From positions 2,914,001 through 2,978,000 of the forward strand of contig NZ_CP102099.1 in assembly GCF_024582815.1 (NCBI RefSeq): DNA of 64,000 nucleotides, in the 5' to 3' direction. Below are positions 8,791-56,909 of the stretch, in pieces. A model generated the notes under the pieces. The model was not told the origin of the DNA. It was given only the letters and a program-made list of their open reading frames with translations, and searched no databases. The stretch's first letter is position 1. Each line of letters begins with the position of its first letter. The DNA is from Acinetobacter colistiniresistens (GTDB lineage: Bacteria > Pseudomonadota > Gammaproteobacteria > Pseudomonadales > Moraxellaceae). Position numbers and translations under genes: made by a program.

Positions 8791-9786
8791 ATGAACACCA
8801 AACGTAATATTTATAAAACCGCAGAACATCCATTTGCTCAGTATGTGCGTATTTTAGGTAAGGGCAAAACAGGGTCTCGTTCGCTCAGTTACGAAGAAGC
8901 TTATCAAGCTTTTACGATGATTTTAAAAGATGAAGTACTGGATGTGCAGTTAGGTGCATTCTTGATGCTGTTGCGTGTTAAAGAAGAGTCTGTGGATGAG
9001 CTGGCAGGTTTTGTTCAAGCCACCCGTGACCAACTCAGTTTTCAGCCACTTGATGTTGACCTTGACTGGTCTTCTTATGCAGGCAAGCGTAAGCACTATC
9101 CATGGTTCTTATTGGCAGCACTGACTTTAGCACATCATGGTTACAAAATTGTGATGCATGGTGCATCTGGTCATACCATTAACCGTGTCTATACCGAACA
9201 AGTACTACAATACTTAGGCTATTCAATTTGCCAAAATGAACAAGAGGTTCGTGAGCAGCTGGAACAACACCATTTTGCCTACTTGCCACTTGAGGTCATC
9301 TCACCAATTTTAAGTGAATTGATTTCACTACGAAATGTCATGGGATTACGCTCACCAATTCATACACTGGCACGCCTGATCAACCCCTTTAATGCCAAAG
9401 CAACCTTACAGGCAATTTTTCACCCTGCTTATCGTAGTTCACACCAGCAAACTGCGTTTCGTTTGGGTTATCAAAACAGTGCAGTGATTAAAGGTGAAGG
9501 TGGCGAGTTTGAGCGTAATCCTGATGCCAAAACCTTAATTTGTGGGATTAAAAATGGTGAGTTATACGAACTCGAACTGCCTAAATTGACCCCTGACCGT
9601 AGCCCAATTGAAGAAGAGCTTGATTTAGCTGTGTTTAGAGCCGTTTGGCTGGGTGAGCAAACACATGAATATGGAGAAATGGCAGTCATTGAAACTATGG
9701 GAATCGCACTATATACCATGGGTGTGGTCAATAGTTATGATGAGGCAATGGAGAAAGCTCAAGCCCTTTGGCAGAGCCGTTTCTAA
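8791..9786 (+). CDS. ybiB: TrpD2/YbiB-like glycosyltransferase-fold protein
   Basis: Belongs to the anthranilate phosphoribosyltransferase-like family (YbiB/TrpD2). Members keep the TrpD fold but are reported to bind nucleic acid rather than make tryptophan. The N-terminal helical domain (YVRILGKGKTGSRSLSYEEAYQAF..ILKDEVLDVQLGAFLMLLRVKEES) and the phosphoribosyl-binding-like HGASGHT loop are recognisable. I start at the ATG at 8791; a longer frame from 8713 adds a hydrophobic stretch that does not belong to the family. It is alone, with a hairpin terminator behind it, and no trp genes are near. Confidence 0.85.
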   Translation: MNTKRNIYKTAEHPFAQYVRILGKGKTGSRSLSYEEAYQAFTMILKDEVLDVQLGAFLMLLRVKEESVDELAGFVQATRDQLSFQPLDVDLDWSSYAGKRKHYPWFLLAALTLAHHGYKIVMHGASGHTINRVYTEQVLQYLGYSICQNEQEVREQLEQHHFAYLPLEVISPILSELISLRNVMGLRSPIHTLARLINPFNAKATLQAIFHPAYRSSHQQTAFRLGYQNSAVIKGEGGEFERNPDAKTLICGIKNGELYELELPKLTPDRSPIEEELDLAVFRAVWLGEQTHEYGEMAVIETMGIALYTMGVVNSYDEAMEKAQALWQSRF

Positions 9787-9794
9787 TATCAAAT

Positions 9795-9823
9795 AGACCA
9801 AGGCTATCAAACGGCCTTGGTCT
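9795..9823. terminator. Hairpin after ybiB
   Basis: AGACCAAGGC (9795-9804) pairs perfectly with GCCTTGGTCT (9814-9823) over a nine-base loop. The following T-run is weak. The right arm touches the stop codon of the convergent gene. Confidence 0.65.
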
Positions 9824-10239
9824 TATGGTTCAACATAATAAAAATCTGGCCAAAACGGATATTCATGAGCGGAAGAATGAATATTTCTTAAGCTCAATTG
9901 ATCACCGATTTTGATTGTAATCTTATTCGAATCATAAGGACCAGACAGATACGCATCTCTTTGTTGACCAATAAGTGTCTTACAATAGGCATGATGCGCT
10001 TTGATCTTTTGGGAGTTCCGCATGGTTTGAGCGTCCATGACCTCAATCCCAATCAACAACATAGGATAACCATCATTTTTTATTGCTGTATATTCAGTTT
10101 GAGGTGAAGTGTATTTCTGGCTGGCAATCACCTTCACCTTGAGTAAACATTCAATCGGCTGTTTAGCCAAGGCAGTGCCACTCAGTAAACTAAGCAATAA
10201 GAACGTGCAGACAAGTTTTATAAGTTTCATCCCATTCAT
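9823..10239 (-). CDS. Exported hypothetical protein, 138 aa
   Basis: Unrecognised small secreted protein. It has a clear signal peptide (KLIKLVCTFLLLSLLSGTALA, cut before KQP), then about 115 mature residues with three Cys. That pattern suggests a periplasmic disulphide-containing protein. The alternative start three codons in (ATG 10230) fits the signal peptide equally well. It ends inside the ybiB terminator hairpin. Confidence 0.72.
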   Translation of the reverse strand: MNGMKLIKLVCTFLLLSLLSGTALAKQPIECLLKVKVIASQKYTSPQTEYTAIKNDGYPMLLIGIEVMDAQTMRNSQKIKAHHAYCKTLIGQQRDAYLSGPYDSNKITIKIGDQLSLRNIHSSAHEYPFWPDFYYVEP

Positions 10240-10258
10240 TATTATCTTTTGATAAAGA

Positions 10259-10289
10259 TAAAAAAAGCCCAGTGTTGACTGAGCTCTTT
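10259..10289 (-). terminator. Terminator after the DUF1315 gene
   Basis: Imperfect hairpin (CAGT / ACTG core with flanking GC pairs) ending in seven T on the minus strand, just past the DUF1315 stop codon. Confidence 0.6.
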
Positions 10290-10293
10290 AAGT

Positions 10294-10566
10294 TTAAACA
10301 AAACGAATCGGCTTAAATTCAGGTTCGTTATGATGATGATCATCATCACATTCCTCACCGTCTTTTTTTGTACCGCGGTCGATATAACCACTGCGCTGTT
10401 CTTTAGGCAAATGTTCCATTTCCCATGCATACACAGCTTGCATACAAATTTCACGCTGCTCTTTAGTTAATGCAATCCCATTAGGCCATTTACCAATTTC
10501 AACAGCAGTTTTCAGGCGCTCAACAATTTCAGGATTTAAAATAGCGAGCATTTGTTCAATATTCAT
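10294..10566 (-). CDS. DUF1315 (YeaC-like) protein
   Basis: Small cytosolic protein of 90 residues in the DUF1315/YeaC family, of unknown function. The conserved opening is visible: a short helix, then LKTAVEIGKWPNGIALTKEQRE and the AVYAWE segment. The C-terminus has a GEECDDDHHHNEPEF run that could bind metal. Its ATG overlaps the nadK stop codon as ATGA, so translation is coupled to NAD kinase. Confidence 0.85.
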   Translation of the reverse strand: MNIEQMLAILNPEIVERLKTAVEIGKWPNGIALTKEQREICMQAVYAWEMEHLPKEQRSGYIDRGTKKDGEECDDDHHHNEPEFKPIRFV

Positions 10567-19964: not shown

Positions 19965-20525
19965 TTAAGCAGCTTCCAAATGAATTAAACGCTCAATATA
20001 ATACCAGCACTCTTCAATTTTAGCGCGATCCTTGTTCACTTTCGCATATGCAGTCATACCATCAAGTATATTGATATACATCGCGGTTAATACATGTGGT
20101 TGAAACACCTTCGCCTTTTCAAATAAATCTTCGATCAGCGCCATTAACCACTCACGATATTCAACAATCGGCCCAATAATTGAAGGATACTGTTGTAGTA
20201 TTTCTAAAGAGGCTTTCTGAAACATACAACCATGAAAATCATCTGTATTAAACCAAGCCAAATGCCAAAAATAAACGGCTTTGATTTTCCCCAAATAATC
20301 ACCTTCTGCTATTAAACTGATTTCGTGTTCAATGGCGACTTGAATACTTTTATTCCTACGAGAAAGGCATTCTTCAATCAAATTTTCCTTAGAAGGAAAA
20401 TATTTGTAGAAAGTCATTTTGGCAACGCCAGACTCACTGATAATTCGGTCCACACCTACAGAGCTGTAGTTATGACGGTTAAAAAGATCTAGAGCCGTTA
20501 CAATGATATCTTCTTTTTTTGACAT
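19965..20525 (-). CDS. TetR/AcrR-family transcriptional regulator
   Basis: 186 residues. The N-terminal helix-turn-helix is typical (DIIVTALDLFNRHNYSSVGVDRIISESGVAKMTFYKYFPSKENLI). The ligand domain is of the type seen in NemR/YcdC-like regulators. Its natural partner is probably the divergent diiron-protein gene at 21954, but an IS982-family element now sits between them. The ligand is unknown. Confidence 0.9.
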   Translation of the reverse strand: MSKKEDIIVTALDLFNRHNYSSVGVDRIISESGVAKMTFYKYFPSKENLIEECLSRRNKSIQVAIEHEISLIAEGDYLGKIKAVYFWHLAWFNTDDFHGCMFQKASLEILQQYPSIIGPIVEYREWLMALIEDLFEKAKVFQPHVLTAMYINILDGMTAYAKVNKDRAKIEECWYYIERLIHLEAA

Positions 20526-20781
20526 TTTATTATCCTTTTAGAATTCTATCAAAAAACTTAATGCATTATTTAGACATAGTTTAAGTGCTGGAAATTCTGG
20601 CCACTCACTATGTGTGTTTATGTTATTGTAAGAGCATTATAGAAAAGTCATATTTTCTTTATTGTCCCTCTTATAGGGTATGTAAAAATCAGTCTATAAA
20701 CAAGATCATTTGTAAAAAACCTTTCTATTTTTAAAATATTTTTTTAAACGTGAAGCAATTCACTCTTTATTTACAGTTAAG

Positions 20782-34241: not shown

Positions 34242-34509
34242 ACCGTATTTTTTGTTCGATTCAGCAAGCTCAAAATGTAGCATGTTGCTTTCATATTTGA
34301 TAAGAAATTTTAACCCTAAGCTCCATTTCCCTCACAAAACGAAGCCATTTGCCAATTCATTGCCCTATATCACGCTGTTTCAACAAAACTCTCTTTGCAG
34401 TTTGACATTCGCTTCAACGATAATAAAAGCTTAGTGGTTATTTTCTTTAACGATTCATTCATAAAGAACTATAAATTTTATTAAACCCGTGACAACAAGG
34501 GGAATTTAC

Positions 34510-35967
34510 ATGGGATTTAAAGCTCTCCCGACGCTGATTTCTTTATTTATTGCATTCATCATCTGGTTTGTCATTCCGGTACCCGCTGGCGTTGATCCTG
34601 ATGCATGGCATTTACTGGCGATGTTTGTTGGTGTGATTGCTTCCATTATTGGTAAAGCCATGCCGATTGGTGCAATTGCAATTATTGCCATTACTTTGGT
34701 CGCCGTGACGGGTGTCACCAATGACAACCCAAGTGGCGCCATTCAAGATGCGCTTAGTAGTTTTGCCAACCCGCTGATCTGGTTGATCGGTATTTCGATC
34801 ATGATTTCTAAAGGTTTGCAAAAAACCGGATTGGGTGCACGCTTAGGCTATTTATTTATCGCGGTTTGGGGCAAGAAAACCATTGGTATCGGTTATAGCA
34901 TGGTGCTGTCTGAACTGATTCTTGCCCCTGTTACCCCAAGTAATACCGCACGTGGCGGCGGAATTATCCATCCGATTGTCCGTGCCATTTCGACCAGCTA
35001 TGACTCTGACCCAGCCAAAGACACCGAAGGTCGTATGGGGAAATACTTAGCTTTGGTGAACTACCAAGCCAACCCGATTACTTCTGCCATGTTTATTACC
35101 GCAACCGCCCCTAACCCCTTGGTGGTTGATCTGGTGGCAAAAGCAACCAACAGTCAGATTTCCTTGAGCTGGAGTACATGGGCACTGGCGATGTTATTAC
35201 CGGGTTTGCTTGCCTTGATCATCATGCCATTAATCATGTATTGGATGTATCCACCCGAAGTCAAAGAAACCCCGAATGCAGCTCAGTTTGCCAAAACCAA
35301 GTTAAAAGAAATGGGCCCTGTCAGCAAAAATGAAATCATTATGCTCGGCGTATTTGGTATCTTGCTGCTGTTATGGGCAGGCATCCCTGCCATGATTTTT
35401 GGTTCAGCTTGGGCGGTTGACCCAACCACAACTGCTTTTATTGGTTTGGGCTTGCTACTGATTACTGGCGTACTGACTTGGGAAGATATCCTGACGCAAA
35501 AAAGCGCATGGGATACCATCACTTGGTTTGCTGCCTTGGTGATGATGGCGACTTATTTAAATAAGCTCGGTTTAATCACGTGGTTCTCAGGTGTGTTAGA
35601 AACAGGGATTGGTCATTTAGGACTGAGCTGGATGCCGGCCTGTTTACTATTAATGCTCGCCTATCTGTATGCACATTATATGTTTGCCAGTACCACCGCA
35701 CATATCACGGCTATGTTTGCCGCCTTCTATACGGCTGGACTGGCATTAGGTGCACCACCGATGTTGTTTGCCTTAATGATGGCAGCAGCATCAAGCATCA
35801 TGATGACCTTAACCCATTATGCAACGGGTACATCACCTGTGGTATTCGGTTCAGGTTACACCACACTGGGTGAATGGTGGAAAGCTGGCTTTGTCATGAG
35901 TGTCGTCAATATCATCATCTTTGTGCTGATTGGCGGACTTTGGTGGAAAGTATTGGGTTATTGGTAG
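34510..35967 (+). CDS. DASS-family anion (dicarboxylate):sodium symporter
   Basis: Inner-membrane transporter of 485 residues in the divalent anion:Na+ symporter family (CitT/TtdT/YbhI branch). Two substrate-clamp motifs are visible: PVTPSNTARGGGI in the first half and TTAHITAMFAAF with ATGTSPVVFGSGY in the second. The start at ATG 34510 follows AAGGGG. Likely substrates are 2-oxoglutarate, malate, tartrate or similar; the exact one is not readable. Single gene with its own terminator. Confidence 0.9.
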   Translation: MGFKALPTLISLFIAFIIWFVIPVPAGVDPDAWHLLAMFVGVIASIIGKAMPIGAIAIIAITLVAVTGVTNDNPSGAIQDALSSFANPLIWLIGISIMISKGLQKTGLGARLGYLFIAVWGKKTIGIGYSMVLSELILAPVTPSNTARGGGIIHPIVRAISTSYDSDPAKDTEGRMGKYLALVNYQANPITSAMFITATAPNPLVVDLVAKATNSQISLSWSTWALAMLLPGLLALIIMPLIMYWMYPPEVKETPNAAQFAKTKLKEMGPVSKNEIIMLGVFGILLLLWAGIPAMIFGSAWAVDPTTTAFIGLGLLLITGVLTWEDILTQKSAWDTITWFAALVMMATYLNKLGLITWFSGVLETGIGHLGLSWMPACLLLMLAYLYAHYMFASTTAHITAMFAAFYTAGLALGAPPMLFALMMAAASSIMMTLTHYATGTSPVVFGSGYTTLGEWWKAGFVMSVVNIIIFVLIGGLWWKVLGYW

Positions 35968-35980
35968 GATGATTTAGCTT

Positions 35981-36009
35981 AAAAAAAGCCCCTTACAAAG
36001 GGGCTTTTT
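35981..36009. terminator. Terminator after DASS transporter
   Basis: AAAAAAAGCCCC pairs with (A)GGGGCTTTTT over a short loop; bidirectional. Confidence 0.93.
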
Positions 36010-36073
36010 CATGTAACTAATTTAAAGGATACTAGAAATATAAACCCAGACACCGAATAAAATGATATCAGCT

Positions 36074-36298
36074 TCATTCATTAGGCTTGATGTCATAAAC
36101 CCAGTTTCGTGCTTGCTGATCGGTTGTCGTTTCGCAGACATAGTAATCTTGATGCCACGAGTCTTGATGGAAGATTTCCTTTTTGTGGTAGCTGACTTGT
36201 TTGCCATTTTCGACACAGATAAAACTGTCACCTTGATCTTTCACAGCTGAACCGTTAAGAAATCCACCAATACATAAGAAGCGGGATTGTTTCGCCAT
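36074..36298 (-). CDS. Small hypothetical protein, 74 aa
   Basis: Unrecognised. The amino-acid composition looks like a real cytosolic protein (two Cys, several aromatics, no low-complexity runs). A GGAG lies about 13 bases upstream of the ATG, which is somewhat distant. It lies between the DASS terminator and the DUF262-HEPN cassette. Overlapping frames on the other strand are judged shadows. Confidence 0.55.
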   Translation of the reverse strand: MAKQSRFLCIGGFLNGSAVKDQGDSFICVENGKQVSYHKKEIFHQDSWHQDYYVCETTTDQQARNWVYDIKPNE

Positions 36299-36401
36299 TA
36301 ATTTCGATTAACTCCAAATAATTGAATGATAAAAAATAACTCAATTACATTTATGTCGAAAAAATTATAATTGCCATTAGTTAAGCCTTTTTATTTAAAA
36401 A

Positions 36402-36922
36402 CTACTTACAATTCTTCACAAAATATTGATAAATTTTCTGAAAAATTGGCAAAATGCTATCAACCTCCATTATATAAAAACTAGGCGCTTGATAAGAACT
36501 CGCTCCATTTAAATAATTGTGAGCAGCTTCATTACGTAGTGTTTTAAATGTATTCAACTTAGATTCTAATAAGGCTAAATCACCGGAGCTACGTAAATGG
36601 TTTAATAAACTTTCTGTTTTTCCAAACCTAAACTTTTAATTAATAGAACTCTAAAATGATTATCATATGTAAAGCCATAATTTCTCTTAATTGAATCTTC
36701 ACCAATTTTAACTAGATCAGGGTCATTAATATTCTTCATAATTCTACGTATTAATATATCAATACTAACTTCCAACCATCCACAATATTCTATTAAAGCT
36801 AATTTACTATAAAATATCATATGAAGATTGGTATTAACTGATGTATTTTGTGCAGATTTATCATATAGAACTTTCAATTCTTTAAGATTATGCTTAATTT
36901 TACTTTTAGACAATCTAGACAT
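36402..36922 (-). pseudogene. HEPN protein resembling the MAE_28990/MAE_18760 family, frameshifted
   Basis: The frame from ATG 36922 stops at 36602 after GLEKQKVY. Adding one base to the five-base run at 36617-36621 restores a frame to the TAG at 36402, giving about 173 residues. That continuation reads GLEKTESLLNHLRSSG... then TLRNEAAHNYLNG and YQAPSFYIMEVD. RNEAAH fits the R-x4-H active-site motif of HEPN ribonucleases, and the N-terminal FYSKLALIEYCGWLE and YGFTYDNHFRVLLIKSLG resemble MAE_28990-type HEPN proteins. The start overlaps the DUF262 stop as TAATG, so the two are co-translated. The shift could be real decay, recoding or an assembly error. Confidence 0.75.
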
Positions 36923-38036
36923 TAAGCTCTACCAAATATTTCTTCTGCCACATTCAAACGACTATTCACTTTTTCTTTGCTAGCTAAGCCTTCTTTTAAT
37001 GATATTAATGAAAAATTCTCGTGCGATTTAAGTTCATTTACTTTACTTCTAAATACTTCCTCATTTAAGAGTGCTTCATTATTCAAATTTTTATAAACAC
37101 CATAGAGTATGGCTTCTACAATTGTTTTACTAAATTTAGCTATACGCTCATCACGGAATACAAGTGAAAGTGTCTGTAATAGTTTGTTCTTCCATTCTAA
37201 ACACTTACTATCACTAGGATTAAGATGGTCATCCATAAAATCATTCAAGAAATTTGACAACTTACCATTATATTTATCTAACTTTTCTGAAAAAGCTATC
37301 ACCCTTAGATATAACTCTTCATATTGATATCTATAATTACTGCCCAATAATGCATTTGCACTCGATATATTTGAAGTTTTATACTTAAAGAAAGATTGGG
37401 ATTCAGGTGTATTTGCAATTTCTTTCAATAAATTATTCAATTTACCTGAGTATATACAATTACGAATTTCCTGATTATTTAGTTTTGAACCACCTGAATT
37501 TAATCTATGGAATATTGTAAACAGATGGCGCATATGCGATTTTTTACTATAGTCACATCTTAATACAGTAATAGGAATTGTTACATTTTCAATCCGAGAA
37601 AATAAATCAGGATTTTCATTTTTAATTTGATTAGGTGTTTTACCTCTAAGCCTTTGATCAATTTCTTTAATATTTGATAGAGTCCAACTTTCTTCATTCA
37701 AAAACTGACAATAGTAGAAATACGTTGTAAACCATCAATCACCAATCTTTTATCAGTTTTGTAATCGAGACTGATACACATACTTGGAATAGGTAGCTGC
37801 TTAGCTAGAGAATCAATAAATTTAGATCGAGCACTAATAGACCATACTAAATTTCTCTGGAACTCGGGATCGATAGTTAATTGATTGGATTTATACATTC
37901 TCAATAAATCAGCACATGATCTCAATTCATTAAATGCAATTATGTCACTTGGAGGTGTTTCATTATCATCATGTTCTTCTGACAAACGCTCCTCTTCCTC
38001 TACAATTTGCTCTTCATTAATCTCTATTTGTGTCAT
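36922..38036 (-). pseudogene. DUF262 (ParB-like nuclease fold) protein, frameshifted
   Basis: The first part (38036-37698, 112 residues) holds the DUF262 signatures DPEFQRNLVWS and VIDGLQRIST, then stops after TIVSF. The second part (37701-36922) starts MNEESWTL and continues the family (TVLRCDYSKKSHMRHLFTIFHRLNSGGSKLNNQEIRNCIYSG, typical of the domain's middle). One extra base in the five-base run at 37700-37704 would join them as VSFLNEESW, giving about 371 residues. An AGAGGT ribosome-binding site precedes ATG 38036. DUF262 proteins such as GmrS-type halves are linked to restriction and anti-phage defence. The region is visibly more AT-rich than its neighbours. Confidence 0.8.
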
Positions 38037-38063
38037 TTTGAACCTCTAAAATACTTATTTATA

Positions 38064-38097
38064 AAAATAAGGGCTGATTACTCAGCCCTTATTTTTA
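38064..38097 (-). terminator. acnB terminator
   Basis: A perfect 15-bp stem (AAAAATAAGGGCTGA / TCAGCCCTTATTTTT) with a four-base loop, between acnB and the DUF262 gene. Confidence 0.93.
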
Positions 38098-38110
38098 GCT
38101 CACTAACATA

Positions 38111-40750
38111 TTAGGTTAATTGAGCCGCTTGGATTTTCTTGGTATCAACTTGATCAGCTTCTTTTGTATATTCGCTCATCTTGTCGAAGTTCAAGTATTT
38201 GTAGATGTCCGCAGAAGCGCTGTCGATTTGCGACGCGTACTGTTGATATTCTTCTGGGCTTGGTAATTTACCAAGCACCGCAGCAACAGATGCAAGCTCA
38301 GCAGATGCCAAGTAAACGTTTGCACCTTGACCTAAACGGTTCGGGAAGTTACGTGTAGACGTCGATACACAGGTAGTGTTCGGTGCTACACGTGCCTGGT
38401 TACCCATACACAATGAACAGCCCGGCATCTCTGTACGCGCACCAGCACGGCCATAGATGTTATACAAGCCTTCTTCCATCAATTGATGCTCGTCCATACG
38501 TGTTGGTGGAGCCAACCATAAACGAGTAGACAATGAACCACCAGGTACTTTGTCAAGTAATTGACCCGCTGCACGGAAGTGACCGATGTTAGTCATACAA
38601 GAACCGATGAATACTTCATCAATCTTGTCGCCTTGAACATCAGAAAGAAGTTTTGCGTCATCTGGATCGTTCGGGCAGCAAAGAATTGGTTCTTTGATGT
38701 CAGCAAGATCGATTTCGTAAACTTTTAAGTATTCTGCATCAGCATCAGCTTTTAACAGGCTTGGGTTGTCTAACCACTTCTGCATGTTTTCAGCACGACG
38801 CGCTAGCGTACGCGCATCGCCATAACCTTCAGCGATCATCCACTTCAACATGGTGATGTTAGAACGTAAGTATTCAGCAACTTTCTCTTCAGAAAGTGTG
38901 ATTGAACAACCAGCAGCAGAACGCTCAGCAGATGCATCAGAAAGTTCGAATGCTTGCTCAACCGTCAAGTCATTTTCCATTTCTGATAAATCGATCTCAA
39001 GGATACGACCAGAGAAGATGTTTTTCTTACCTTTCTTCTCTACAGTTAAGTCACCCGCTTGAATCGCGTAGTAAGGAATTGCATGTACTAGGTCACGTAA
39101 AGTGATACCAGGCTGCATTTTACCCTTGAACTTAACCAGTACAGATTCAGGCATATCCAGTGGCATAACGCCAGTTGCAGCTGCGAACGCAACAAGACCA
39201 GAACCCGCTGGGAAAGAGATACCGATTGGGAAACGTGTATGTGAGTCACCACCAGTACCAACAGTATCTGGAAGTAACATACGGTTTAACCAAGAGTGGA
39301 TAATACCGTCACCTGGACGTAAAGATACACCACCACGGTTCATAATGAAGTCAGGTAATGTATGATGAGTTGTTACGTCAACTGGTTTTGGATACGCAGC
39401 AGTGTGACAGAAAGACTGCATCACTAAGTCAGCTGAGAAGCCCAAGCATGCCAAGTCTTTTAACTCGTCACGCGTCATCGGACCTGTTGTATCTTGAGAA
39501 CCAACAGTCGTCATTTTAGGTTCACAGTAAGTACCCGGACGGATACCTTGGCCTTCTGCTAAACCACATGCACGACCAACCATCTTCTGAGCTTGTGTGA
39601 AGCCTTTGCCAGTGTCAGCAGGTTGTACTGGTGTACGGAACAATGTAGACGGTGCAAGACCCAATTCTTCACGGGCTTTCGCAGTCAAACCACGACCAAT
39701 GATCAAGTTAATACGACCACCAGCACGTACTTCATCTAAAAGTACAGGCGTTTTAAGCTCAGCTTCTGCAATTTGTGCACCGTCTTTAAATGCAGTTACT
39801 TTTGCAGCAGCGTGATCAATTTTCAATACAACTTCGTCGCCCATGTTCATGTTGGCAACGTCGATTTCTACAGGTAATGCACCTGCATCTTCCATTGTGT
39901 TGAAGAAAATTGGCGCAATCTTAGAACCTAAGCACACACCACCATCTTTTTTGTTTGGAATGTGTGGAAGTTCATCACCGAAGAACCAAAGAACAGAGTT
40001 CGTTGCAGATTTACGAGAAGAACCTGTACCAACAACATCACCTACGTAAGCAACTTGGTTGCCTTTCGCGATCAGTTCTTTGATTTGGTTTAGTGGACCA
40101 ACTTCACCTGGTTTTTCAGGGTTGATACCGTCACGCTCGTTTTTCAACATTGCGTTTGCGTGTAATGGGATGTCTGGACGACTCCAAGCATCTTGAGCTG
40201 GAGACAAGTCATCCGTATTGGTCTCACCTGTTACTTTGAACACAGTGATTTTGATTTCTTCTGGAACATCAGCACGGCTTGTGAACCATTCTGCATCAGC
40301 CCAAGATTGTAATACCGCTTTAGCAGCAGCATTGCCTGCTTTTGCTTTGTCAGCTACGTCATGGAATGCATCAAATACAAGAAGAGTTTTCTTTAACGCT
40401 TCAGCAGCTAATTCAGCCAGCTCAGCATTGTCTAGAAGTTCAACAAGCGGTGCTACGTTATAACCACCAAGCATGGTACCTAGTAAATAAACTGCACGTT
40501 CTTTAGATACGAGTGGAGAGGTTGCTTCGCCTTTTGCAACAGCAGCTAAGAAAGCAGCTTTTACATATGCAGCTTGGTCAACACCTGCTGGAACACGATT
40601 TTCTAGTAAATCGACTAAATAAGCTTCTTCACCTGCTGGTGGATTTTTTAATAAGGCTACGAGTTCAGCAGTTTGAGCATCATCAAGCGGCTTCGGTGGG
40701 ACTCCGAGTGCGGCACGTTCTTGAACGTGTTGGCGGTAAGCTTCTAGCAC
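38111..40750 (-). CDS. acnB: Aconitate hydratase B
   Basis: TCA-cycle isomerisation of citrate to isocitrate by a [4Fe-4S] enzyme; AcnB also acts as an iron-responsive RNA-binding protein in other bacteria. 879 residues with the AcnB-specific N-terminal HEAT-like domain (MLEAYRQHVQERAALGVPPKPL), the swivel domain, and cluster cysteines in SFCHTAAYPKP-proximal and GCSLCMGNQARV segments. The start is GTG at 40750 with AGAGGAA upstream. An inverted repeat lies in the leader. Confidence 0.96.
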   Translation of the reverse strand: MLEAYRQHVQERAALGVPPKPLDDAQTAELVALLKNPPAGEEAYLVDLLENRVPAGVDQAAYVKAAFLAAVAKGEATSPLVSKERAVYLLGTMLGGYNVAPLVELLDNAELAELAAEALKKTLLVFDAFHDVADKAKAGNAAAKAVLQSWADAEWFTSRADVPEEIKITVFKVTGETNTDDLSPAQDAWSRPDIPLHANAMLKNERDGINPEKPGEVGPLNQIKELIAKGNQVAYVGDVVGTGSSRKSATNSVLWFFGDELPHIPNKKDGGVCLGSKIAPIFFNTMEDAGALPVEIDVANMNMGDEVVLKIDHAAAKVTAFKDGAQIAEAELKTPVLLDEVRAGGRINLIIGRGLTAKAREELGLAPSTLFRTPVQPADTGKGFTQAQKMVGRACGLAEGQGIRPGTYCEPKMTTVGSQDTTGPMTRDELKDLACLGFSADLVMQSFCHTAAYPKPVDVTTHHTLPDFIMNRGGVSLRPGDGIIHSWLNRMLLPDTVGTGGDSHTRFPIGISFPAGSGLVAFAAATGVMPLDMPESVLVKFKGKMQPGITLRDLVHAIPYYAIQAGDLTVEKKGKKNIFSGRILEIDLSEMENDLTVEQAFELSDASAERSAAGCSITLSEEKVAEYLRSNITMLKWMIAEGYGDARTLARRAENMQKWLDNPSLLKADADAEYLKVYEIDLADIKEPILCCPNDPDDAKLLSDVQGDKIDEVFIGSCMTNIGHFRAAGQLLDKVPGGSLSTRLWLAPPTRMDEHQLMEEGLYNIYGRAGARTEMPGCSLCMGNQARVAPNTTCVSTSTRNFPNRLGQGANVYLASAELASVAAVLGKLPSPEEYQQYASQIDSASADIYKYLNFDKMSEYTKEADQVDTKKIQAAQLT

Positions 40751-41471: not shown

Positions 41472-41957
41472 TCATTTACTACAGTGCATGTTATTGCCTA
41501 ACTTTTGACATTTTCCACCATTAGCAGAGAGATACGTTGTTCCAGCGACTAGATTATAGGACTTGCCTTTCATATCCCAACATCTAACCCCGTTGCAGTT
41601 TTTGACAGGGATAAGCACTTCACTTGTCGTGACAACATTGCTTGTAGCTGCCGTGTTCGCATTGACAGGCTTAGTCGATGTTGTTGCGACAGTTGCAGTC
41701 ACCGTTGTGATTTTTGGCTCTTTAGAAGTAGTCAGCGATTGTGCACTCGCCTGTTGGGTGGCCGAAGTACTGGCATTCTTTTTAACAGGATCAAGCTGAG
41801 GTTCTTGTCGTTGTACTGGTTGTGGTGTTGCTGAATAGGTAGTAACACCTTTGGCATCCACCCACTTATAGTATTCTTGGGCATTGACGTGGAGTGTTGA
41901 ACTGATGAACACTAAGCCAAGCACTGCCCAAAGCTGACCAAAAGTGACAGATTTCAT
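41472..41957 (-). CDS. DUF4124-domain exported protein
   Basis: 161 residues. A signal peptide (to VNAQ) is followed by YYKWVDAKGVTTYSATPQP, the DUF4124 signature found near the N-terminus of many gammaproteobacterial envelope proteins. A long Thr/Ala/Ser-rich linker (~55-115) leads to a small C-terminal Cys-containing domain (CNGVRCWDMKGKSYNL and CQKLGNNMHCSK) that could form two disulphides. Function unknown. Confidence 0.82.
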   Translation of the reverse strand: MKSVTFGQLWAVLGLVFISSTLHVNAQEYYKWVDAKGVTTYSATPQPVQRQEPQLDPVKKNASTSATQQASAQSLTTSKEPKITTVTATVATTSTKPVNANTAATSNVVTTSEVLIPVKNCNGVRCWDMKGKSYNLVAGTTYLSANGGKCQKLGNNMHCSK

Positions 41958-42050
41958 TTATTTTCTCCAAAAAACGTCATAAAATCGTTTATTATCAATA
42001 ATTTACAATAATTCTATCACATTTTTTTATTTTCAAGAAACTTACATCAT

Positions 42051-42082
42051 AAAAAACCTGCTTTAAATAAAGCAGGTTTTTT
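42051..42082 (-). terminator. tamB terminator
   Basis: AAAAAACCTGCTTT pairs with AAAGCAGGTTTTTT across AAAT, just past the tamB stop. Confidence 0.93.
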
Positions 42083-42092
42083 ATATCTACAA

Positions 42093-45000
42093 TCAGAAGC
42101 GCCAATTGTAGAATACGTCAATCGCACGCTCTAAAGACTGACTCGCTTCCAGATATAAACGACGGTTCATCTGATAACGCAAGGTCAATTTATTTACAGG
42201 GGTAAATACACCAATACCATAGCGAATGAATAGGTCTGGTGTGATATATCCGGTCAGACTGACCTGCGTATCATCGCCCGTACCCTGCGCATCCAACGCC
42301 AAGCCACTCAAACCAAAGGTTCGACCAATCTGGTTGGTCAAGGCTCGTGTACCGCCCAAGCCCATACTAATCCCCGCAGCAGCAATGGTGTTATTCACGT
42401 CAGACTTAAAGCCTTCGGTATTACTTAAACCACTGTTACCTTCATTAATACGACCAGTAAGTAAAGCATTCAGGGCTTCCTGTTCAGACAAGCCTGCATC
42501 GTTATAAATTTGAATATTCGGTACAGTGGCTGTTCCTGTGACACGTACCCCAACCATGCTACCTTGAACGGGTTTATTGGCATCAATATCCAAGGTCGGG
42601 TTGGCCAATGGTCCATTGAAACGCGCAATAGCACGGTTCAAATCAAGACTTTGACCGTAGGCTTCAATCTTCACTTTTTGACTGACACCAATCGCACCAT
42701 TCGCACGCATTGCTGTTTCTAGACCACGTTGAGAAAGGTGTAAACGGCCAGCTAAAGGAATGGTACTTTCGAAGCCTTGGAAGATCACCTGATTGCCAAG
42801 AGTTACCGTCATATCGGCACGGATATCCCACGGTTTAGCTGCTTTTAAAGTCGCAAGCAGGTCTTGACCTTGTTGTACTACACGCACATCTGGCGACAAG
42901 TTCACCACAGTCGCCGAGCTTTCCGGCATCGAAATGCGCGCACGCGGCACATCAATCGTCCCTTTTAGACTTAAGCGCTGATTAAACGGATAAACGTCCA
43001 GCGTCAGATCAGGTTCTACAATTGCAGTAATCATCGGTGCCTGACGCACCAGTAAATTATCACCTTTTAAGGTCAGGTTGAGATGTGGGTCATTTTTCCA
43101 GTCAAAGCTACCTTTTAAGCGCCCTACACCTTGTCCACTATTAAATGCACCATCAATACTTGCAGAGTCCTGTCGTATAGAAGAATAAAGCTGGATATTG
43201 CTTAAATTGACTGGCAGGGAGATCATACTGATTGCGCCATTTTTTAAACGCATCTCACCTGTAACCTGTGGCTGAGTCAAGGTTCCATTGACCTTACCAG
43301 CCAATGATAAAGTTCCAGCCATTGAGCGTACATCTTTAATAAATGGTTTAAAGACTTTTAGCTGTACGTCATCAAATGCCACTTCGCCACGCATCGGCAT
43401 ATTATTTTGAAATGGGTCAATAATCACATTGGCATAACCCGTACCAATATCAGGTGTTTTCATATCCACACGGAATAACAGACCTTCACTGATACTCTTG
43501 GCAATCAAACTTAACTCATCATAAGTTACAGTCGTTGCAGGATCCTGAGGATCATCCGCTGCCAATCCAATCTCACCTTTACGCGTCACTAAACGTGCAT
43601 CAAGTTTAGGATGACTACCATTTGCCCAAGCTGCTTTGGCATAGCCATTCAATTGACCCGTCACAGCCAGACCTTCAGGCATAAATGCCGTGAAGTCTTT
43701 TAAATCCAGATTTTTGGTAATAAATGAAAAACTACCTTTTTCCTTACTCATACGTGCAGGTTGATCTAAACATAACTGGCTGCTCGAACTTTGCCAGCAG
43801 TGCTGACCTATATAAAGCTCTTGTTGCGCGGTGGTATAGATAATCGGCGCACTCTGATTTTGTACCAAACGAATATTACGTGAAGTAAAATTACCTTTTT
43901 GCAGCTGTCCAAGCCAGTCATTCTTCGGATTAAAACCACCCGCAAGCTGAAGATAAAAATTCGATTGACGGTTTTTACTTTCTACTTTTAATACGTGTGC
44001 TTTACGTGTTCCCGCCAAGTTTACTGTTGCTTGTTCAATTTCACGATTGCCATTACGCAATCGATCCAAAGTCGCTGTCAATTGTGTAGGTGTGGTTTCA
44101 GAAGTCGGCAATTCACCCTGTACACGCAAAGAACGAATCGTCACCAGATCGTTAAAAGCAAAATTATCGACCATGATGTTCGCAGTTGCTCTTAGACGTG
44201 GTTTGGACTGTACATTCAAACTGCCATAAGCTCGACCACGCAAGCCCGGATACAGCTCATACAATGCAGGCGCATTCAGTTTAATACGTAAATTTTGTGC
44301 ATTACCTGTGGCTTGAAGCTGGTTCTGAGCATAAGCAAAGAATAGATCATTGGCTTCAAATTGCTGCGGCAAGAAGCCTTCTTGATTTGAGTCCAATAAC
44401 AGGCTGAGATTACCACGACCACGAATCGGTTTATTATTGATGAAACCCGCCGTATTCAATTCACGAATATCAATACGCTTGAGCTTGTCTGACCATACGC
44501 CCTGTGTTTTTACCCGCCCAGAAATTTCACCTTTCACACTTGAGACAAAATACTGTGGCTTGAAGCGTACCAATGAAGCATTAATATCCCAACCCAGTTT
44601 ATCTTTGAGATTGACTGCGCCTGTGGCATAAACCTTGCCTGCAACACCGTCATGATTGAGTTCATTAATCTTGATGTAATCTGGTGTGCCCGCAATTTTA
44701 ATTTTTAATATGCCATTACCTTGATTCAATGCATTTAAGGAACCATCATAATTCACTGCAAAACTCTTGAAGCCACCACCCGCTTTTTCATCATTAAAAA
44801 TCAGGGCGGCGGTACTTTTACCTTTCAAAGCAAGAGTTTCTGTCTTATTTTCTTGTGGCAATTGCCCTTTTAAATCAATCTGTTCAAGCTGAATAATTTG
44901 TTGGTTTGGTTTGGCAAAACCACTGGCTTTGATTTCACCATTTAATAAGTTAATCGGTGCTGCTGCCGCAATCGTTTGCGGGTTAAAATCCTGTGCCTTG

Positions 45001-46604
45001 AGCTGTGCTTGCCATGATAGCTGTTGTTTTTCAGTTGGTAATTTAACTTTTGCCTGTCCAGTCAAACTGCCTTTTTCAGCTTCATAACGGAAATTTTCAA
45101 CATTTAACAGGTCACCCTTAACGTCTAAACGGGCATCATATTTACCTGTTGGCAATAATGCCTGCTCATGCGGACGGATTGTCGTTGATACATAGATATC
45201 TTGCTGACCTTCTTTTAAGGTCAGATTGGTATGACCTTCTTCACTACTCAGCCAGCCAATATATGGCATAGCACGATCAATCCCTTTCCAAGAAATATCC
45301 AATAACATCGGCTGAGGCTTATTGTCTTTTTCTTCGTCCTGATTGAGCTTAACTGCCCAAGTTTCATATTTATCAAATGCGAGCTGTGCATTGACAACCA
45401 AACCTTTTTGCAAAGAACCGGTTGAGCTTAAGTTCGCATCCAGATTGGGTGGCAAAAAGTCTTGCGCAATTTGCGGTACAGTTTTGTCTTTTGGATCTAA
45501 ACGTTCCAAACGTCCTTTTAGATCCCAAGAGACATGATCGTGCCAATTAACGGAACCCAGCAAATTTGCTGTGCCGCCCATCAGTTGACCATTAAACTCG
45601 CGAATATTCAATTGATGGGTTAAATCCGTATCCATCAGCGCAGTATATTGCCCCTCAGGAACTTGCTCGCCTTTTAAATCCGTATCTAAAGTCAAGACTA
45701 ACTTTTGAATATCACCTTTAAATCTAGCGATGCCATCTTTTGCAAATAACTTCTGATCTTTAATTAATGGTAAGTGATAATTTTTAAAGAATAGCTCACC
45801 ATTCATTGGCACATGATCACGTACTGGATGAACAACTGCCCAACCCGTCAGCAAATCTGGTGTAAGCGTTGCAACACCGACCTTCAGGGTATCCAGACTA
45901 CCTCTAGCGGCAACTTTGATGATCTCAATATCTAGACTTTTTAATGATGGGATAATCAGATCTGCTTTGGCATTTAATGGGTATTTACCACTAAAATCCA
46001 TCTCTCCAGAAGCATTTTGCACGGCTAAATGCTCCATCTTCATGCGAGAGTCTTTAAACTTTAATTTGGTTTCCGACCACAATGCGTCTTTTAGAAAGAT
46101 GTCACTAAAGTCAACCTTCGAGGTTGTGGTTTGAAACTCTAAATGATCTAAAGTTGCATCATCAACACGCAGTACAAAGGGTAATTTAATTGGATCAAAT
46201 CCAAAGGGCTTGCCCGAAGGTGGTTTTTTATCAATAATTTTGAGATTACGTACATCGGCATGGCTGAGGTGTACTTCTTTTTTTAAAATCGCTCGCCAAC
46301 CTAAAGACACGTCGGCACGATCTAAAGAGATTTCAATTGCATCCAGTTCAACCAGCACATTTTTAAGAATGATGCCAGATAACAGGTTACCGCTCTCATA
46401 TTGATATTTGATAATTTTTTGGCTTTGAAGTACACGGTCTAATAAAAAGCGACTCCCTTTATCCGTAGACATCATAACAAGCAAAGAACTGACCAATAAC
46501 AAAAGAATGATCAATAAAATCAGCGCAATATTTCGAAAAATACGCCGTTGCTGTCTTGGTTCTGCTGGAGGTGTAAGTTGCTGTTCTACTTCCGTCATAA
46601 TCAA
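42093..46604 (-). CDS. tamB: TamB, inner-membrane subunit of the translocation and assembly module
   Basis: 1503 residues. It has an N-terminal membrane anchor (~residues 24-46), a very long beta-rich AsmA/TamB repeat region, and the conserved C-terminal DUF490 domain (GRINEGNSGLSNTEGFKSDVNN, VSLTGYITPDLFIRYGIGVF, ending DVFYNWRF). TamB-like proteins form periplasm-spanning grooves thought to move phospholipids and, with TamA, aid outer-membrane protein insertion. It lies 44 bp downstream of tamA. ATG 46598 is an alternative start. Confidence 0.94.
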   Translation of the reverse strand: MIMTEVEQQLTPPAEPRQQRRIFRNIALILLIILLLLVSSLLVMMSTDKGSRFLLDRVLQSQKIIKYQYESGNLLSGIILKNVLVELDAIEISLDRADVSLGWRAILKKEVHLSHADVRNLKIIDKKPPSGKPFGFDPIKLPFVLRVDDATLDHLEFQTTTSKVDFSDIFLKDALWSETKLKFKDSRMKMEHLAVQNASGEMDFSGKYPLNAKADLIIPSLKSLDIEIIKVAARGSLDTLKVGVATLTPDLLTGWAVVHPVRDHVPMNGELFFKNYHLPLIKDQKLFAKDGIARFKGDIQKLVLTLDTDLKGEQVPEGQYTALMDTDLTHQLNIREFNGQLMGGTANLLGSVNWHDHVSWDLKGRLERLDPKDKTVPQIAQDFLPPNLDANLSSTGSLQKGLVVNAQLAFDKYETWAVKLNQDEEKDNKPQPMLLDISWKGIDRAMPYIGWLSSEEGHTNLTLKEGQQDIYVSTTIRPHEQALLPTGKYDARLDVKGDLLNVENFRYEAEKGSLTGQAKVKLPTEKQQLSWQAQLKAQDFNPQTIAAAAPINLLNGEIKASGFAKPNQQIIQLEQIDLKGQLPQENKTETLALKGKSTAALIFNDEKAGGGFKSFAVNYDGSLNALNQGNGILKIKIAGTPDYIKINELNHDGVAGKVYATGAVNLKDKLGWDINASLVRFKPQYFVSSVKGEISGRVKTQGVWSDKLKRIDIRELNTAGFINNKPIRGRGNLSLLLDSNQEGFLPQQFEANDLFFAYAQNQLQATGNAQNLRIKLNAPALYELYPGLRGRAYGSLNVQSKPRLRATANIMVDNFAFNDLVTIRSLRVQGELPTSETTPTQLTATLDRLRNGNREIEQATVNLAGTRKAHVLKVESKNRQSNFYLQLAGGFNPKNDWLGQLQKGNFTSRNIRLVQNQSAPIIYTTAQQELYIGQHCWQSSSSQLCLDQPARMSKEKGSFSFITKNLDLKDFTAFMPEGLAVTGQLNGYAKAAWANGSHPKLDARLVTRKGEIGLAADDPQDPATTVTYDELSLIAKSISEGLLFRVDMKTPDIGTGYANVIIDPFQNNMPMRGEVAFDDVQLKVFKPFIKDVRSMAGTLSLAGKVNGTLTQPQVTGEMRLKNGAISMISLPVNLSNIQLYSSIRQDSASIDGAFNSGQGVGRLKGSFDWKNDPHLNLTLKGDNLLVRQAPMITAIVEPDLTLDVYPFNQRLSLKGTIDVPRARISMPESSATVVNLSPDVRVVQQGQDLLATLKAAKPWDIRADMTVTLGNQVIFQGFESTIPLAGRLHLSQRGLETAMRANGAIGVSQKVKIEAYGQSLDLNRAIARFNGPLANPTLDIDANKPVQGSMVGVRVTGTATVPNIQIYNDAGLSEQEALNALLTGRINEGNSGLSNTEGFKSDVNNTIAAAGISMGLGGTRALTNQIGRTFGLSGLALDAQGTGDDTQVSLTGYITPDLFIRYGIGVFTPVNKLTLRYQMNRRLYLEASQSLERAIDVFYNWRF

Positions 46605-54902: not shown

Positions 54903-55676
54903 TCAAGTTGCCTGACAAACTGGACAATTTATATCTTTTTCAAATTTAAGAATACGTTGCGTTAAATTTAAGCCATTCCAAAGCAATAGTTTTTGCTTGA
55001 GTGGAGTCAAACCTAAGCCTAAAAATAGCAATGTGTGATGTGCTTGTAATGACGCTATCATTACAGGAGTGGTGGCTAATACGCCTGACTCCGCACAGCG
55101 CAGCCCTTCATTGGCATGATCTTCTTTCGGAAACAGGCATTCATAACAGGCTGAATCAGCATCTACCATAAACATCTGTCCTTCAAAACCAATCGCCGAC
55201 GCACTAATTAAAGGGACTTGATGTTTTTTACACACTGCATTGACCAGATAACGAGTTGTAAAGTTATCACAGCCATCTAAGACTACATCTTGATGCTGTA
55301 CGAGTTCATCAGCATTCGTTTCATCAAATCGTATATTTTGATAACTGACCTGTATATGCGGATTAATGTCTTGTAGATGCTTTGCCAATATTTCTGCTTT
55401 GTATCGACCTAAATCATTTGTCGTAAAGGCAATTTGTCTTTGTAGATTACTTATTTCAATCGTGTCGGCATCGACAATGGTAATTTTACCTACACCTGCA
55501 CGTGCCAACAGCTCGGCACTGGTACAGCCGATTCCGCCTGCGCCGATAATCAACACATTGGCGAGTTTTAGTTTTTCTTGTGCTTCGATATCCCAACCAT
55601 CTAATAAAATCTGACGACTATAGAGATGCATTTCCTCATTGCTTAGCTCAAATTCGTTTTCTAAATGGTCTGACAC
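54903..55676 (-). CDS. moeB: MoeB/ThiF/HesA-family adenylyltransferase
   Basis: E1-like enzyme that adenylates the C-terminus of MoaD or ThiS. 257 residues. ATP-binding IIGAGGIGCTSAELLARAGVGKITIVDAD and NLQRQIAF are clear, then CDNFTTRYLVN. A CYEC pair and a C-terminal CPVC pair form the zinc site, and a Cys in LRCAESGVLA is near the catalytic position. No moa or thi genes are adjacent, so whether it serves molybdopterin or thiamine is undecided. Confidence 0.87.
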   Translation of the reverse strand: MSDHLENEFELSNEEMHLYSRQILLDGWDIEAQEKLKLANVLIIGAGGIGCTSAELLARAGVGKITIVDADTIEISNLQRQIAFTTNDLGRYKAEILAKHLQDINPHIQVSYQNIRFDETNADELVQHQDVVLDGCDNFTTRYLVNAVCKKHQVPLISASAIGFEGQMFMVDADSACYECLFPKEDHANEGLRCAESGVLATTPVMIASLQAHHTLLFLGLGLTPLKQKLLLWNGLNLTQRILKFEKDINCPVCQAT

Positions 55677-55739
55677 GTGGTTTGCTTCTTTATCATCAAG
55701 GGTATTGCTGATTTTAAGTCGATGTCTGCTTGGAGGAAA

Positions 55740-55921
55740 GTAATAAATTGGAACCAGCTCTGTTTTCTTTTGACAAAAAGCTATTTTTACCCCAATATTT
55801 TTCTTACTCTTTAACAGCTTAATAAAATCAATAAGTTACTATATCAGTTAGAAACTTTGGGTAATGATGCTTTTTAAGTATAACTTGATGTTTTGGCTGA
55901 TATTATTTTCATTATTTTATA
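55740..55921 (+). promoter_or_regulatory. Probable CRISPR leader
   Basis: AT-rich stretch directly before the first perfect repeat, opposite to the degenerate end. This places the leader on the left and transcription on the plus strand. Confidence 0.6.
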
Positions 55922-56909
55922 GTTCATGACGGCATACGTCATTTAGAAATTCATTGGATGCAACAAGAATAAGATTGTTTAGTTCATGACGGCATACGTC
56001 ATTTAGAAATTTGATTGTCACATTAGATCGAGCCTTTAATAGTTCATGACGGCATACGTCATTTAGAAAGGAAAATAAAAAAACCCCCGAAGGGGTTTGA
56101 TGTTCATGACGGCATACGTCATTTAGAAAAAGGTCAAGCTTGGTGATTCTGCTCGACAAAAGTTCATGACGGCATACGTCATTTAGAAATAGGAAAGGAT
56201 GGCTGGAAATCAGACTACCCTGTTCATGACGGCATACGTCATTTAGAAATGATAAAGCCTGTTTGATTCAACCGCAAATGCGTTCATGACGGCATACGTC
56301 ATTTAGAAAAGTAAAAGGGTTTGCTATTGCAAGCATAGCGGGTTCATGACGGCATACGTCATTTAGAAATTTTGCACTATCTACAATGGATTTTAATGCA
56401 GGTTCATGACGGCATACGTCATTTAGAAATAAAATCCGTGTTAACAGAACCACAATCTACTGTTCATGACGGCATACGTCATTTAGAAAAATTTAATGAC
56501 AGGCGAGTGTGACATACTCGAGTTCATGACGGCATACGTCATTTAGAAAATAGACAGGAATGATCGGCAACATTGGTACAAGTTCATGACGGCATACGTC
56601 ATTTAGAAATTACCGCCTCCCCGATTCCATTTAGGAAATTCGTTCATGACGGCATACGTCATTTAGAAAAGTCGCTCATTTGGGCAAAGAGTCACAGAAT
56701 TGTTCATGACGGCATACGTCATTTAGAAAACTTTGGAATATATCATGAGTGGTTTTAGCTTGTTCATGACGGCATACGTCATTTAGAAAAGATCAAAGAC
56801 ATTGTCGAGCAAAACAATGTTGTTCATGACGGCATACGTCATTTAGAAATCACTTGCAACGTGCAACGGTAATCAAGGAGGGTTCATGACGGTATACGTC
56901 ATTTAAATT
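55922..56909 (+). CRISPR. Type I-F-like CRISPR array, 17 repeats, 16 spacers
   Basis: 28-bp repeats at strict 60-bp intervals with 32-bp spacers. The repeat opens GTTCATGACGGCATACGTCA and ends TTTAGAAA. Its core ATGACG-GCATA-CGTCAT forms a six-bp stem with a five-base loop. Repeats 1-16 are identical; the last (56882-56909) has a C-to-T change in the loop and a decayed 3' end. Spacer length and repeat architecture fit subtype I-F. No cas gene is in the window, so processing would depend on a locus elsewhere. Confidence 0.97.

What the first reader, a model, noticed from the sequence alone, without database searches (positions are those of the whole stretch)
36402..38036. DUF262-HEPN two-gene cassette, candidate defence system
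Seen: a DUF262 protein (EFQR, VIDGLQR motifs) translationally coupled (TAATG) to a protein whose restored frame carries RNEAAH, an R-x4-H HEPN ribonuclease motif. The pair is more AT-rich than its neighbours and lies between two core-gene terminators. Known: DUF262 proteins and MAE_28990-type HEPN proteins occur in restriction and defence islands. Inferred: a nucleotide-sensing or DNA-targeting DUF262 part may control a HEPN RNase in abortive infection.
Basis: partly seen in the sequence, partly recalled or inferred. Interest (0 to 1): 0.75.

Follow-up and report, generated by a model that had tools for sequence, protein, structure and literature searches.

The report
Broken phage-defence pair behind acnB
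Two damaged genes here belong to a known bacterial phage-defence system, PD-T4-2, and they sit in a chromosomal spot just behind a housekeeping gene where related bacteria keep many different small genes, several of them defence-like.

Summary
The pair at 36402-38036 (minus strand) is real and is PD-T4-2, an anti-phage system known from E. coli: a DUF262 protein (A) and a HEPN-type protein (B). All four frame pieces match the PADLOC models (E 1.9e-56, 1.4e-89, 9.8e-29, 4.8e-14). The HEPN is nearest RiboL-PSP-HEPN (weakly), not MAE_28990. Both genes are broken by a frame change at a five-base run; no frame change was flagged in conserved genes of the window against three relatives, so decay is likelier than assembly error, which is not excluded.

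The address is more interesting. The pair starts 24-26 nt behind the acnB terminator hairpin. Over this window and 100 other species of the genus, that place is empty in 5 and holds a first gene in 96, in 44 families, 88 of 96 on acnB's strand; 20 families have a start codon within 30 nt of the hairpin. Several match defence families. ANC 4169 keeps an open-frame PD-T4-2 there. I infer a dock for small genes living on acnB read-through. The system is known; whether the dock is known I could not establish.

The parts
37698..38036 (-). PD-T4-2 A, first piece (112 aa): N-terminal part of DUF262/GmrSD_N with EFQR and VIDGLQR; ends at a frame change near 37700
   Evidence: P0002 residues 1-112 match at 100%
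36922..37701 (-). PD-T4-2 A, second piece (259 aa) in another frame: rest of DUF262 and C-terminal part; no DUF1524 found
   Evidence: P0002 residues 112-371 match at 98.5%
36602..36922 (-). PD-T4-2 B, first piece (106 aa), TAATG overlap with A; ends after a frame change near 36617
   Evidence: P0123 residues 2-104 match at 68%
36402..36632 (-). PD-T4-2 B, second piece in another frame, carries R-N-E-A-A-H (R-x4-H)
   Evidence: P0123 residues 102-172 match at 76%
38063..38096 (.). acnB terminator hairpin (GGGCTGA type), left border of the variable site
   Evidence: no second copy in the window with up to 3 mismatches; one other place in the genome with up to 2 mismatches
38111..40750 (-). acnB, fixed left neighbour (aconitase B; name by eye)
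   Evidence: match in 175 of 175 genomes of the genus
36074..36298 (-). 74-aa conserved ORF of unknown function, right-hand landmark of the site in part of the species
   Evidence: no Pfam or NCBIfam match at E 1
34489..35967 (+). permease-like gene, convergent right neighbour (name by eye)
   Evidence: match, fragments included, in 59 of 175 genomes

Best explanation
The pair is a decayed copy of the known anti-phage system PD-T4-2, lodged in a genus-wide exchange site directly behind the acnB terminator hairpin. In intact copies, protein A (DUF262, a ParB/Srx-like NTP-binding domain, here with D-G-L-Q-R) most likely senses infection, perhaps through phage DNA or nucleotides, and releases or activates protein B, a HEPN ribonuclease that cuts RNA through R-x4-H. 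Shown here: family, order, coupling, motif conservation, breaks, site. Inferred: sensing by A, RNA cutting by B, the order of events. In this strain the pair is probably not functional. The site probably works as an expression dock: many genes there start too close behind the hairpin for a promoter of their own, so they would be transcribed by read-through from acnB or from a promoter in acnB's 3' end (inferred).
For: PADLOC PD-T4-2_A and _B on all four pieces. In 7 of 7 other loci that I opened with a full-length A relative, a B-type gene follows within 12 nt or overlaps: L006, L007 (62), L008 (65), L009 (66), L073 (30, 40), L113 (60, 50), L119 (90); in L006-L009 and L119 the B type was judged by eye from size and R-x4-H. 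B: R129, A132, A133, H134 invariant in 11 of 11 full-length relatives. A: D101-G102-L103-Q104-R105 invariant in 57 of 57 chosen relatives. Breaks: P0002 and P0123 each map to the window in two frames, while no frame change was flagged for 48, 50 and 46 relatives' genes with hits. Site: 44 first-gene families, 88 of 96 first genes on acnB's strand, 5 empty, 38 of 44 families wholly on that strand. A terminator within 30 nt before an ATG: 1 of 227 ORFs in four regions, and that one is PD-T4-2 A itself. No sigma-70-like match on the minus strand between acnB and A (the scan found fewer sites than its shuffles, so it says little).
Against: HEPN match to Pfam is weak; no solved structure matches the B profile at E 10, and the A profile only at 0.17 (7p9k, DUF262); no fold could be predicted. 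Both breaks sit in homopolymers, which is how long-read assembly errors look. Read-through was not measured. In four compared genomes 8 of the 39 other intervals vary more in length than the acnB interval, so variable spots are not rare here. 8 of 96 first genes are on the other strand, and some loci hold transposase-like ORFs (by eye: L091, L097; L129, L162).
Confidence: 0.8

Rival explanations
1. The breaks are assembly errors in homopolymers, and the strain carries a working PD-T4-2.
For: Both breaks are at five-base runs. P0002, an A protein in one frame with 98% identity and 16 cluster members, exists; its source field is '-', so I cannot say which strains it comes from.
Against: 241 runs of five or more in 52 other window ORFs and no frame change flagged in conserved genes against three relatives, against 2 of 10 such runs in the pair. 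No full-length B over 69% identical was found; the only closer B is the 106-aa broken form itself, 2 cluster members.
Confidence: 0.17
2. The broken frames are read by ribosomal frameshifting or switched by phase variation.
For: Both breaks lie in A/T runs.
Against: The runs are five bases long, while the 52 other window ORFs hold 15 runs of seven or more; the listed relatives are read in one frame.
Confidence: 0.03
3. It is a toxin-antitoxin pair for maintenance or stress rather than phage defence.
For: Small coupled pair with a HEPN-type protein; HEPN proteins occur widely in genetic conflict systems (PMC3710099 abstract start, and passages).
Against: Deleting PD-T4-2 in its E. coli strain greatly raised T4 plaquing, and it protects in K-12 (PMC9519451 section 7).
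Confidence: 0.1
4. The acnB site is not special: it is one of many variable intergenic spots, and nearness to the hairpin only marks where homology with acnB ends.
For: 9 of 40 syntenic intervals vary by 400 bp or more in four genomes, the acnB interval ranking ninth.
Against: An ATG within 30 nt of a terminator is found for 1 of 227 ORFs in those genomes, but a start codon within 30 nt of the hairpin in 43 of 96 loci at the acnB site (the two scripts use somewhat different rules); 88 of 96 first genes share acnB's strand.
Confidence: 0.3

Closest known systems
PD-T4-2 (Vassallo et al. 2022)
   Same: Same two families in the same order; all four pieces hit the PADLOC models of that name
   Different: Broken in both genes; sits behind acnB
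GmrSD, BrxU, SspE (DUF262 with DUF1524)
   Same: DUF262 N-terminal domain; motif and NTP use as described in PMC10952713 passages; weak profile match to PDB 7p9k, a DUF262 protein
   Different: No DUF1524 nuclease domain found in A; a separate HEPN-type protein instead
RiboL-PSP-HEPN in operon with ParB (Anantharaman et al. 2013)
   Same: HEPN of this type next to a ParB gene is listed in their table (PMC3710099 passages)
   Different: Match to PF18735 is weak
Core-gene defence hotspots (Pseudomonas, E. coli; Acinetobacter by Yi et al. 2025)
   Same: Variable defence genes between fixed core genes (titles and abstract starts; passages)
   Different: Here mostly one- or two-gene cassettes lie right behind one terminator. 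Yi et al. (PMC11723918) is not held; I saw only its title in a reference list, so overlap is unknown

Membership tests
PD-T4-2 | A component matches the PD-T4-2_A model | tested here: met
   1.9e-56 and 1.4e-89 on two pieces
PD-T4-2 | B component matches the PD-T4-2_B model | tested here: met
   9.8e-29 and 4.8e-14 on two pieces
PD-T4-2 | A and B adjacent, A first | tested here: met
   TAATG overlap; same order in 7 of 7 other loci opened
PD-T4-2 | Each gene open in one frame | tested here: not met
   Each is split over two frames; hence a broken member
PD-T4-2 | Protects against T-even phages | not testable with these tools
   Shown for the E. coli system (PMC9519451 section 7), not here
HEPN ribonuclease | R-x4-H conserved | tested here: met
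   11 of 11 full-length relatives; RNEAAH in the window
HEPN ribonuclease | HEPN fold | not tested
   Structure prediction was busy at all 14 attempts (listed in Tried and rejected)
HEPN_MAE_28990 | Pfam PF18737 match | tested here: not met
   Not among the families matched by 11 relatives at E 0.1 nor by the window pieces at E 1
HEPN_RiboL-PSP | Pfam PF18735 match over cut-off | tested here: inconclusive
   9 of 11 relatives match, best 2.9e-4; 18.7 bits against 28.4 for the one member shown in full
GmrSD type IV restriction | DUF1524 (GmrD-type) nuclease domain | tested here: not met
   Not found in the A pieces at E 1 nor in L073 A at 0.01

The most novel reading that the evidence does not exclude
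Behind the acnB terminator, Acinetobacter species keep a genus-wide dock for interchangeable one- or two-gene cassettes, many of them defence genes, that bring no promoter: leaky read-through past a fixed hairpin gives each newcomer the same low expression, which suits toxic abortive genes, and alleles are swapped by homologous recombination in the flanking core genes, without an integrase of their own.
Probability: 0.4. Interest if true: 0.65.

Novelty: new member of a known kind. Interest (0 to 1): 0.42.

Why it matters
The system is known, so its presence here is ordinary. The address may matter more: if acnB's terminator region supplies expression to whatever lands behind it, the 44 first-gene families found there are a list of candidates to test (24 of 40 cassette proteins scanned match no PADLOC model at 1e-4), and the dock gives a simple testable account of how small toxic defence genes could move between species without an integrase and be expressed at once. 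A broken PD-T4-2 here and an open-frame one at the same site in ANC 4169 show presence and decay of one system at one address.

Tried and rejected
Rejected: new defence system (it is PD-T4-2); MAE_28990 HEPN; GmrSD (no DUF1524); plasmid-borne relatives at DNA level (no match); an Rfam RNA in 35000-39500 (none at 0.1); the hairpin as a repeated attachment site (two places in the genome with up to 2 mismatches; no second copy seen at the far cassette ends by eye); species naming through rpoB against PDB (uninformative).

Controls with limits: the PADLOC control on 51 of the 52 other window ORFs (the longest, 42093-46604, was left out) reports 58 matched families, 25 shown, each in one member, named PDC-S07, mad3 and E1-E2; the number of control proteins hit is not given. 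Enrichment of defence genes at the site is therefore described, not tested. The 40 cassette proteins scanned were picked by hand from the ORF lists (30, among them both PD-T4-2 proteins of L073; 10): 16 of 40 match PADLOC at 1e-4, some weakly (AbiGi 8.7e-5; coiled-coil-like matches of L125). The hairpin count used 47 of 61 loci; the 14 others were dropped because they lack that hairpin, 11 of them having another hairpin and a 144-aa gene about 180 nt on. The hairpin finder missed the hairpin in 17 of 101 loci, some of which have it (L056, L073, L082). The distance for A in the window is 26 or 24 by the two scripts. The background scan found the near start in 11 of 12 positive loci (missed L097); its first version, used a stricter T rule, missed the acnB hairpin and gave 0 of 227. 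The 100 genomes looked at were not a random draw: first those with the permease near acnB, then those with room on the contig; 74 of the 174 other genomes were not looked at behind acnB. L120-L123 were fetched and not opened. Of the 4 papers holding the name PD-T4-2 I opened two.

Full report
What is there. The first gene carries EFQR and VIDGLQR, the second R-N-E-A-A-H, and they overlap as TAATG. GC falls to 0.28-0.30 against about 0.40-0.47 in the neighbouring genes.

What it is. Pfam finds GmrSD_N (DUF262) in both A pieces (5.3e-16, over cut-off; 3.8e-5, under). PADLOC finds PD-T4-2_A (1.9e-56, 1.4e-89) and PD-T4-2_B (9.8e-29, 4.8e-14). PD-T4-2 comes from E. coli ECOR65; its deletion there greatly raised T4 plaquing (PMC9519451, passages, section 7). 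A review lists PD-T4-2 under DUF262 and under PF18735 HEPN and says it has no DUF1524 (PMC10952713, passages). The 2013 HEPN survey already lists RiboL-PSP-HEPN in operon with ParB (PMC3710099, passages). So the pair is a member of a known system. 4 papers of the library hold the name PD-T4-2; I opened two of them, and the passages read give no mechanism for it. 2 papers hold both DUF262 and HEPN.

Relatives. 2415 proteins match the larger A piece (best 120 listed). The best, P0002, is 371 aa in one frame and 98% identical; it has 16 cluster members, a longest contig of 4234 bases and no source name, so I cannot say whose it is. For B, 9 proteins matched; one is the broken 106-aa form on a contig of this chromosome's length, the others are 59-69% identical. 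A search with a full-length B gave 11. B's R129, A132, A133 and H134 are invariant in 11 of 11; 9 of 11 weakly match PF18735, and PF18737 is not among the matches. A's D-G-L-Q-R is invariant in 57 of 57 chosen relatives. In 7 of 7 loci that I opened with a full-length A relative, a B-type gene follows within 12 nt or overlaps: Saprospiraceae L006, Flavobacterium L007, Zixibacteria L008, Aureisphaera L009, Acinetobacter sp. ANC 4169 L073, an unnamed gammaproteobacterium L113, a viral contig L119. The system is rare in the sampled genomes: B in 2 of 175 of the genus and 2 of 369 drawn from the class, the window's genome counted in each.

The breaks. P0002 and P0123 each map to the window in two frames. 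The changes lie at five-base runs near 37700 and 36617. As a control I mapped genes of three relatives to the window: 43 of 48, 45 of 50 and 41 of 46 with hits were intact; 1, 0 and 1 were flagged, the same stretch at 19968-20552, for an in-frame stop and not a frame change; 4, 5 and 4 fell in neither class. In the other direction 2, 3 and 3 window ORFs were flagged, each by in-frame stops. The 52 other ORFs hold 241 runs of five or more, the pair 10. Random assembly error would have to hit 2 of 10 runs here and none of those checked elsewhere. I therefore favour decay, without proof from reads.

The site. acnB has a match in 175 of 175 genomes of the genus, the permease in 59 of 175, fragments included. 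The stretch behind acnB was fetched from 100 of the 174 other genomes. The genus is Acinetobacter by one named record: G110's contig has the length and gene positions of NZ_NEGE01000002.1, Acinetobacter sp. ANC 4169. In the first 61 loci (60 and the window), 47 have the GGGCTGA hairpin behind acnB; 4 are empty (232-287 nt from acnB to the 74-aa gene) and 43 hold a gene, in 22 families, 43 of 43 on acnB's strand; 16 of 22 families have an ATG within 30 nt of the hairpin. With 101 loci, 96 have a first ORF of 90 aa or more in 44 families (blastp linkage at 1e-4), 88 on acnB's strand and 8 on the other, 5 empty; 38 of 44 families are wholly on acnB's strand, and 20 families in 43 loci have an ATG, GTG or TTG in frame within 30 nt of the hairpin. 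In four compared regions of 64-68 kb, 1 of 227 ORFs has a terminator that close before its ATG, and it is PD-T4-2 A. Against this, length variation between core genes is not rare: 9 of 40 intervals vary by 400 bp or more in the same four genomes, and the acnB interval ranks ninth.

Contents. Examples: SLFN_AlbA_2 plus NACHT (L042), DUF4062 (L046), putAbiC (L048), AAA_15 with both PD-T4-4 parts (L057), PDC-S46 (L059, L160), Abi_C (L065), PDDEXK_4/PDC-S26 (L066), PDC-S59 (L082), Mrr_cat/PDC-S02 (L085), HEPN_RiboL-PSP (L095), SLFN_AlbA_2 (L099). Not all look like defence: a family whose L041 member has an FGE-sulfatase domain holds the place in 9 of 96 loci, and a 193-aa family whose L055 member matches nothing in 11 of 96. 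16 of 40 hand-picked cassette proteins match PADLOC at 1e-4; the control does not give a comparable count. ANC 4169 has PD-T4-2 at the same place with A 60% identical while AcnB is 92% identical, so the two copies are either separate arrivals or old alleles.

How it may work. Shown: family, order, motif conservation, breaks, position. Inferred: A senses and uses NTP, by analogy with GmrSD, BrxU and SspE (passages); B cuts RNA. Inferred: starts within 30 nt of the hairpin leave no room for a promoter of the usual size behind it, so transcription must come through or from before the hairpin; no sigma-70-like match lies on the minus strand between acnB and A, though that scan found no more sites than its shuffles. 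By eye I saw no integrase-like ORF between acnB and the 74-aa gene in the lists; an integrase-like 339-aa ORF lies beyond the 74-aa gene in L089 and L092, and transposase-like ORFs occur in L091 and L097 and in L129 and L162.

Prior art for the site. Searches with acnB, hotspot and related words gave no listing whose title or abstract start names this site; I read no more of those papers than that, except passages of PMC12421847 and PMC10121019. Yi et al. 2025 on Acinetobacter hotspots could not be read.

Verdict. The finding as stated is an ordinary, broken member of a known system. Its address is worth a follow-up.

Noticed in passing
window 55914-56730: CRISPR array-like tandem repeats, unit about 60 bases with GTTCATGACGGCATACGTCATTTAGAAA; the interval 55676-56908 differs in length among relatives. 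Looks like a type I-F repeat (recalled). No cas search was made.
   Followed up: partly
L007:4159-7240: In Flavobacterium sp. Root935 the PD-T4-2 pair starts 169 nt behind a gene on the same strand that looks like adenosylhomocysteinase (by eye).
   Followed up: no
L119:2986-4593: A PD-T4-2-like pair, each gene open in one frame, on a 40.7 kb viral contig next to a helix-turn-helix repressor-like gene (by eye).
   Followed up: no
L073:3900-4529: B of ANC 4169 ends in a long run of S-E-T repeats, absent from the other 10 full-length B proteins aligned.
   Followed up: no
L059:529-2706: The PDC-S46 gene at the acnB site is split into ORFs of 115 and 558 aa, while L160 holds it whole at 723 aa: perhaps a second decayed cassette at this site.
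   Followed up: partly
window 9786-10563 and 41957-42093: Two further spots vary in length among four genomes by up to 4.6 and 1.9 kb; in G037 the first holds a VgrG-like gene with small neighbours (by eye).
   Followed up: partly
L055:570-1662: A 193-aa family, found in 11 of 96 loci and 3-6 nt behind the hairpin where printed, sometimes with a 166-aa partner; both L055 proteins match no Pfam (E 0.01) or PADLOC (1e-4) model: a candidate unknown gene to test.
   Followed up: no
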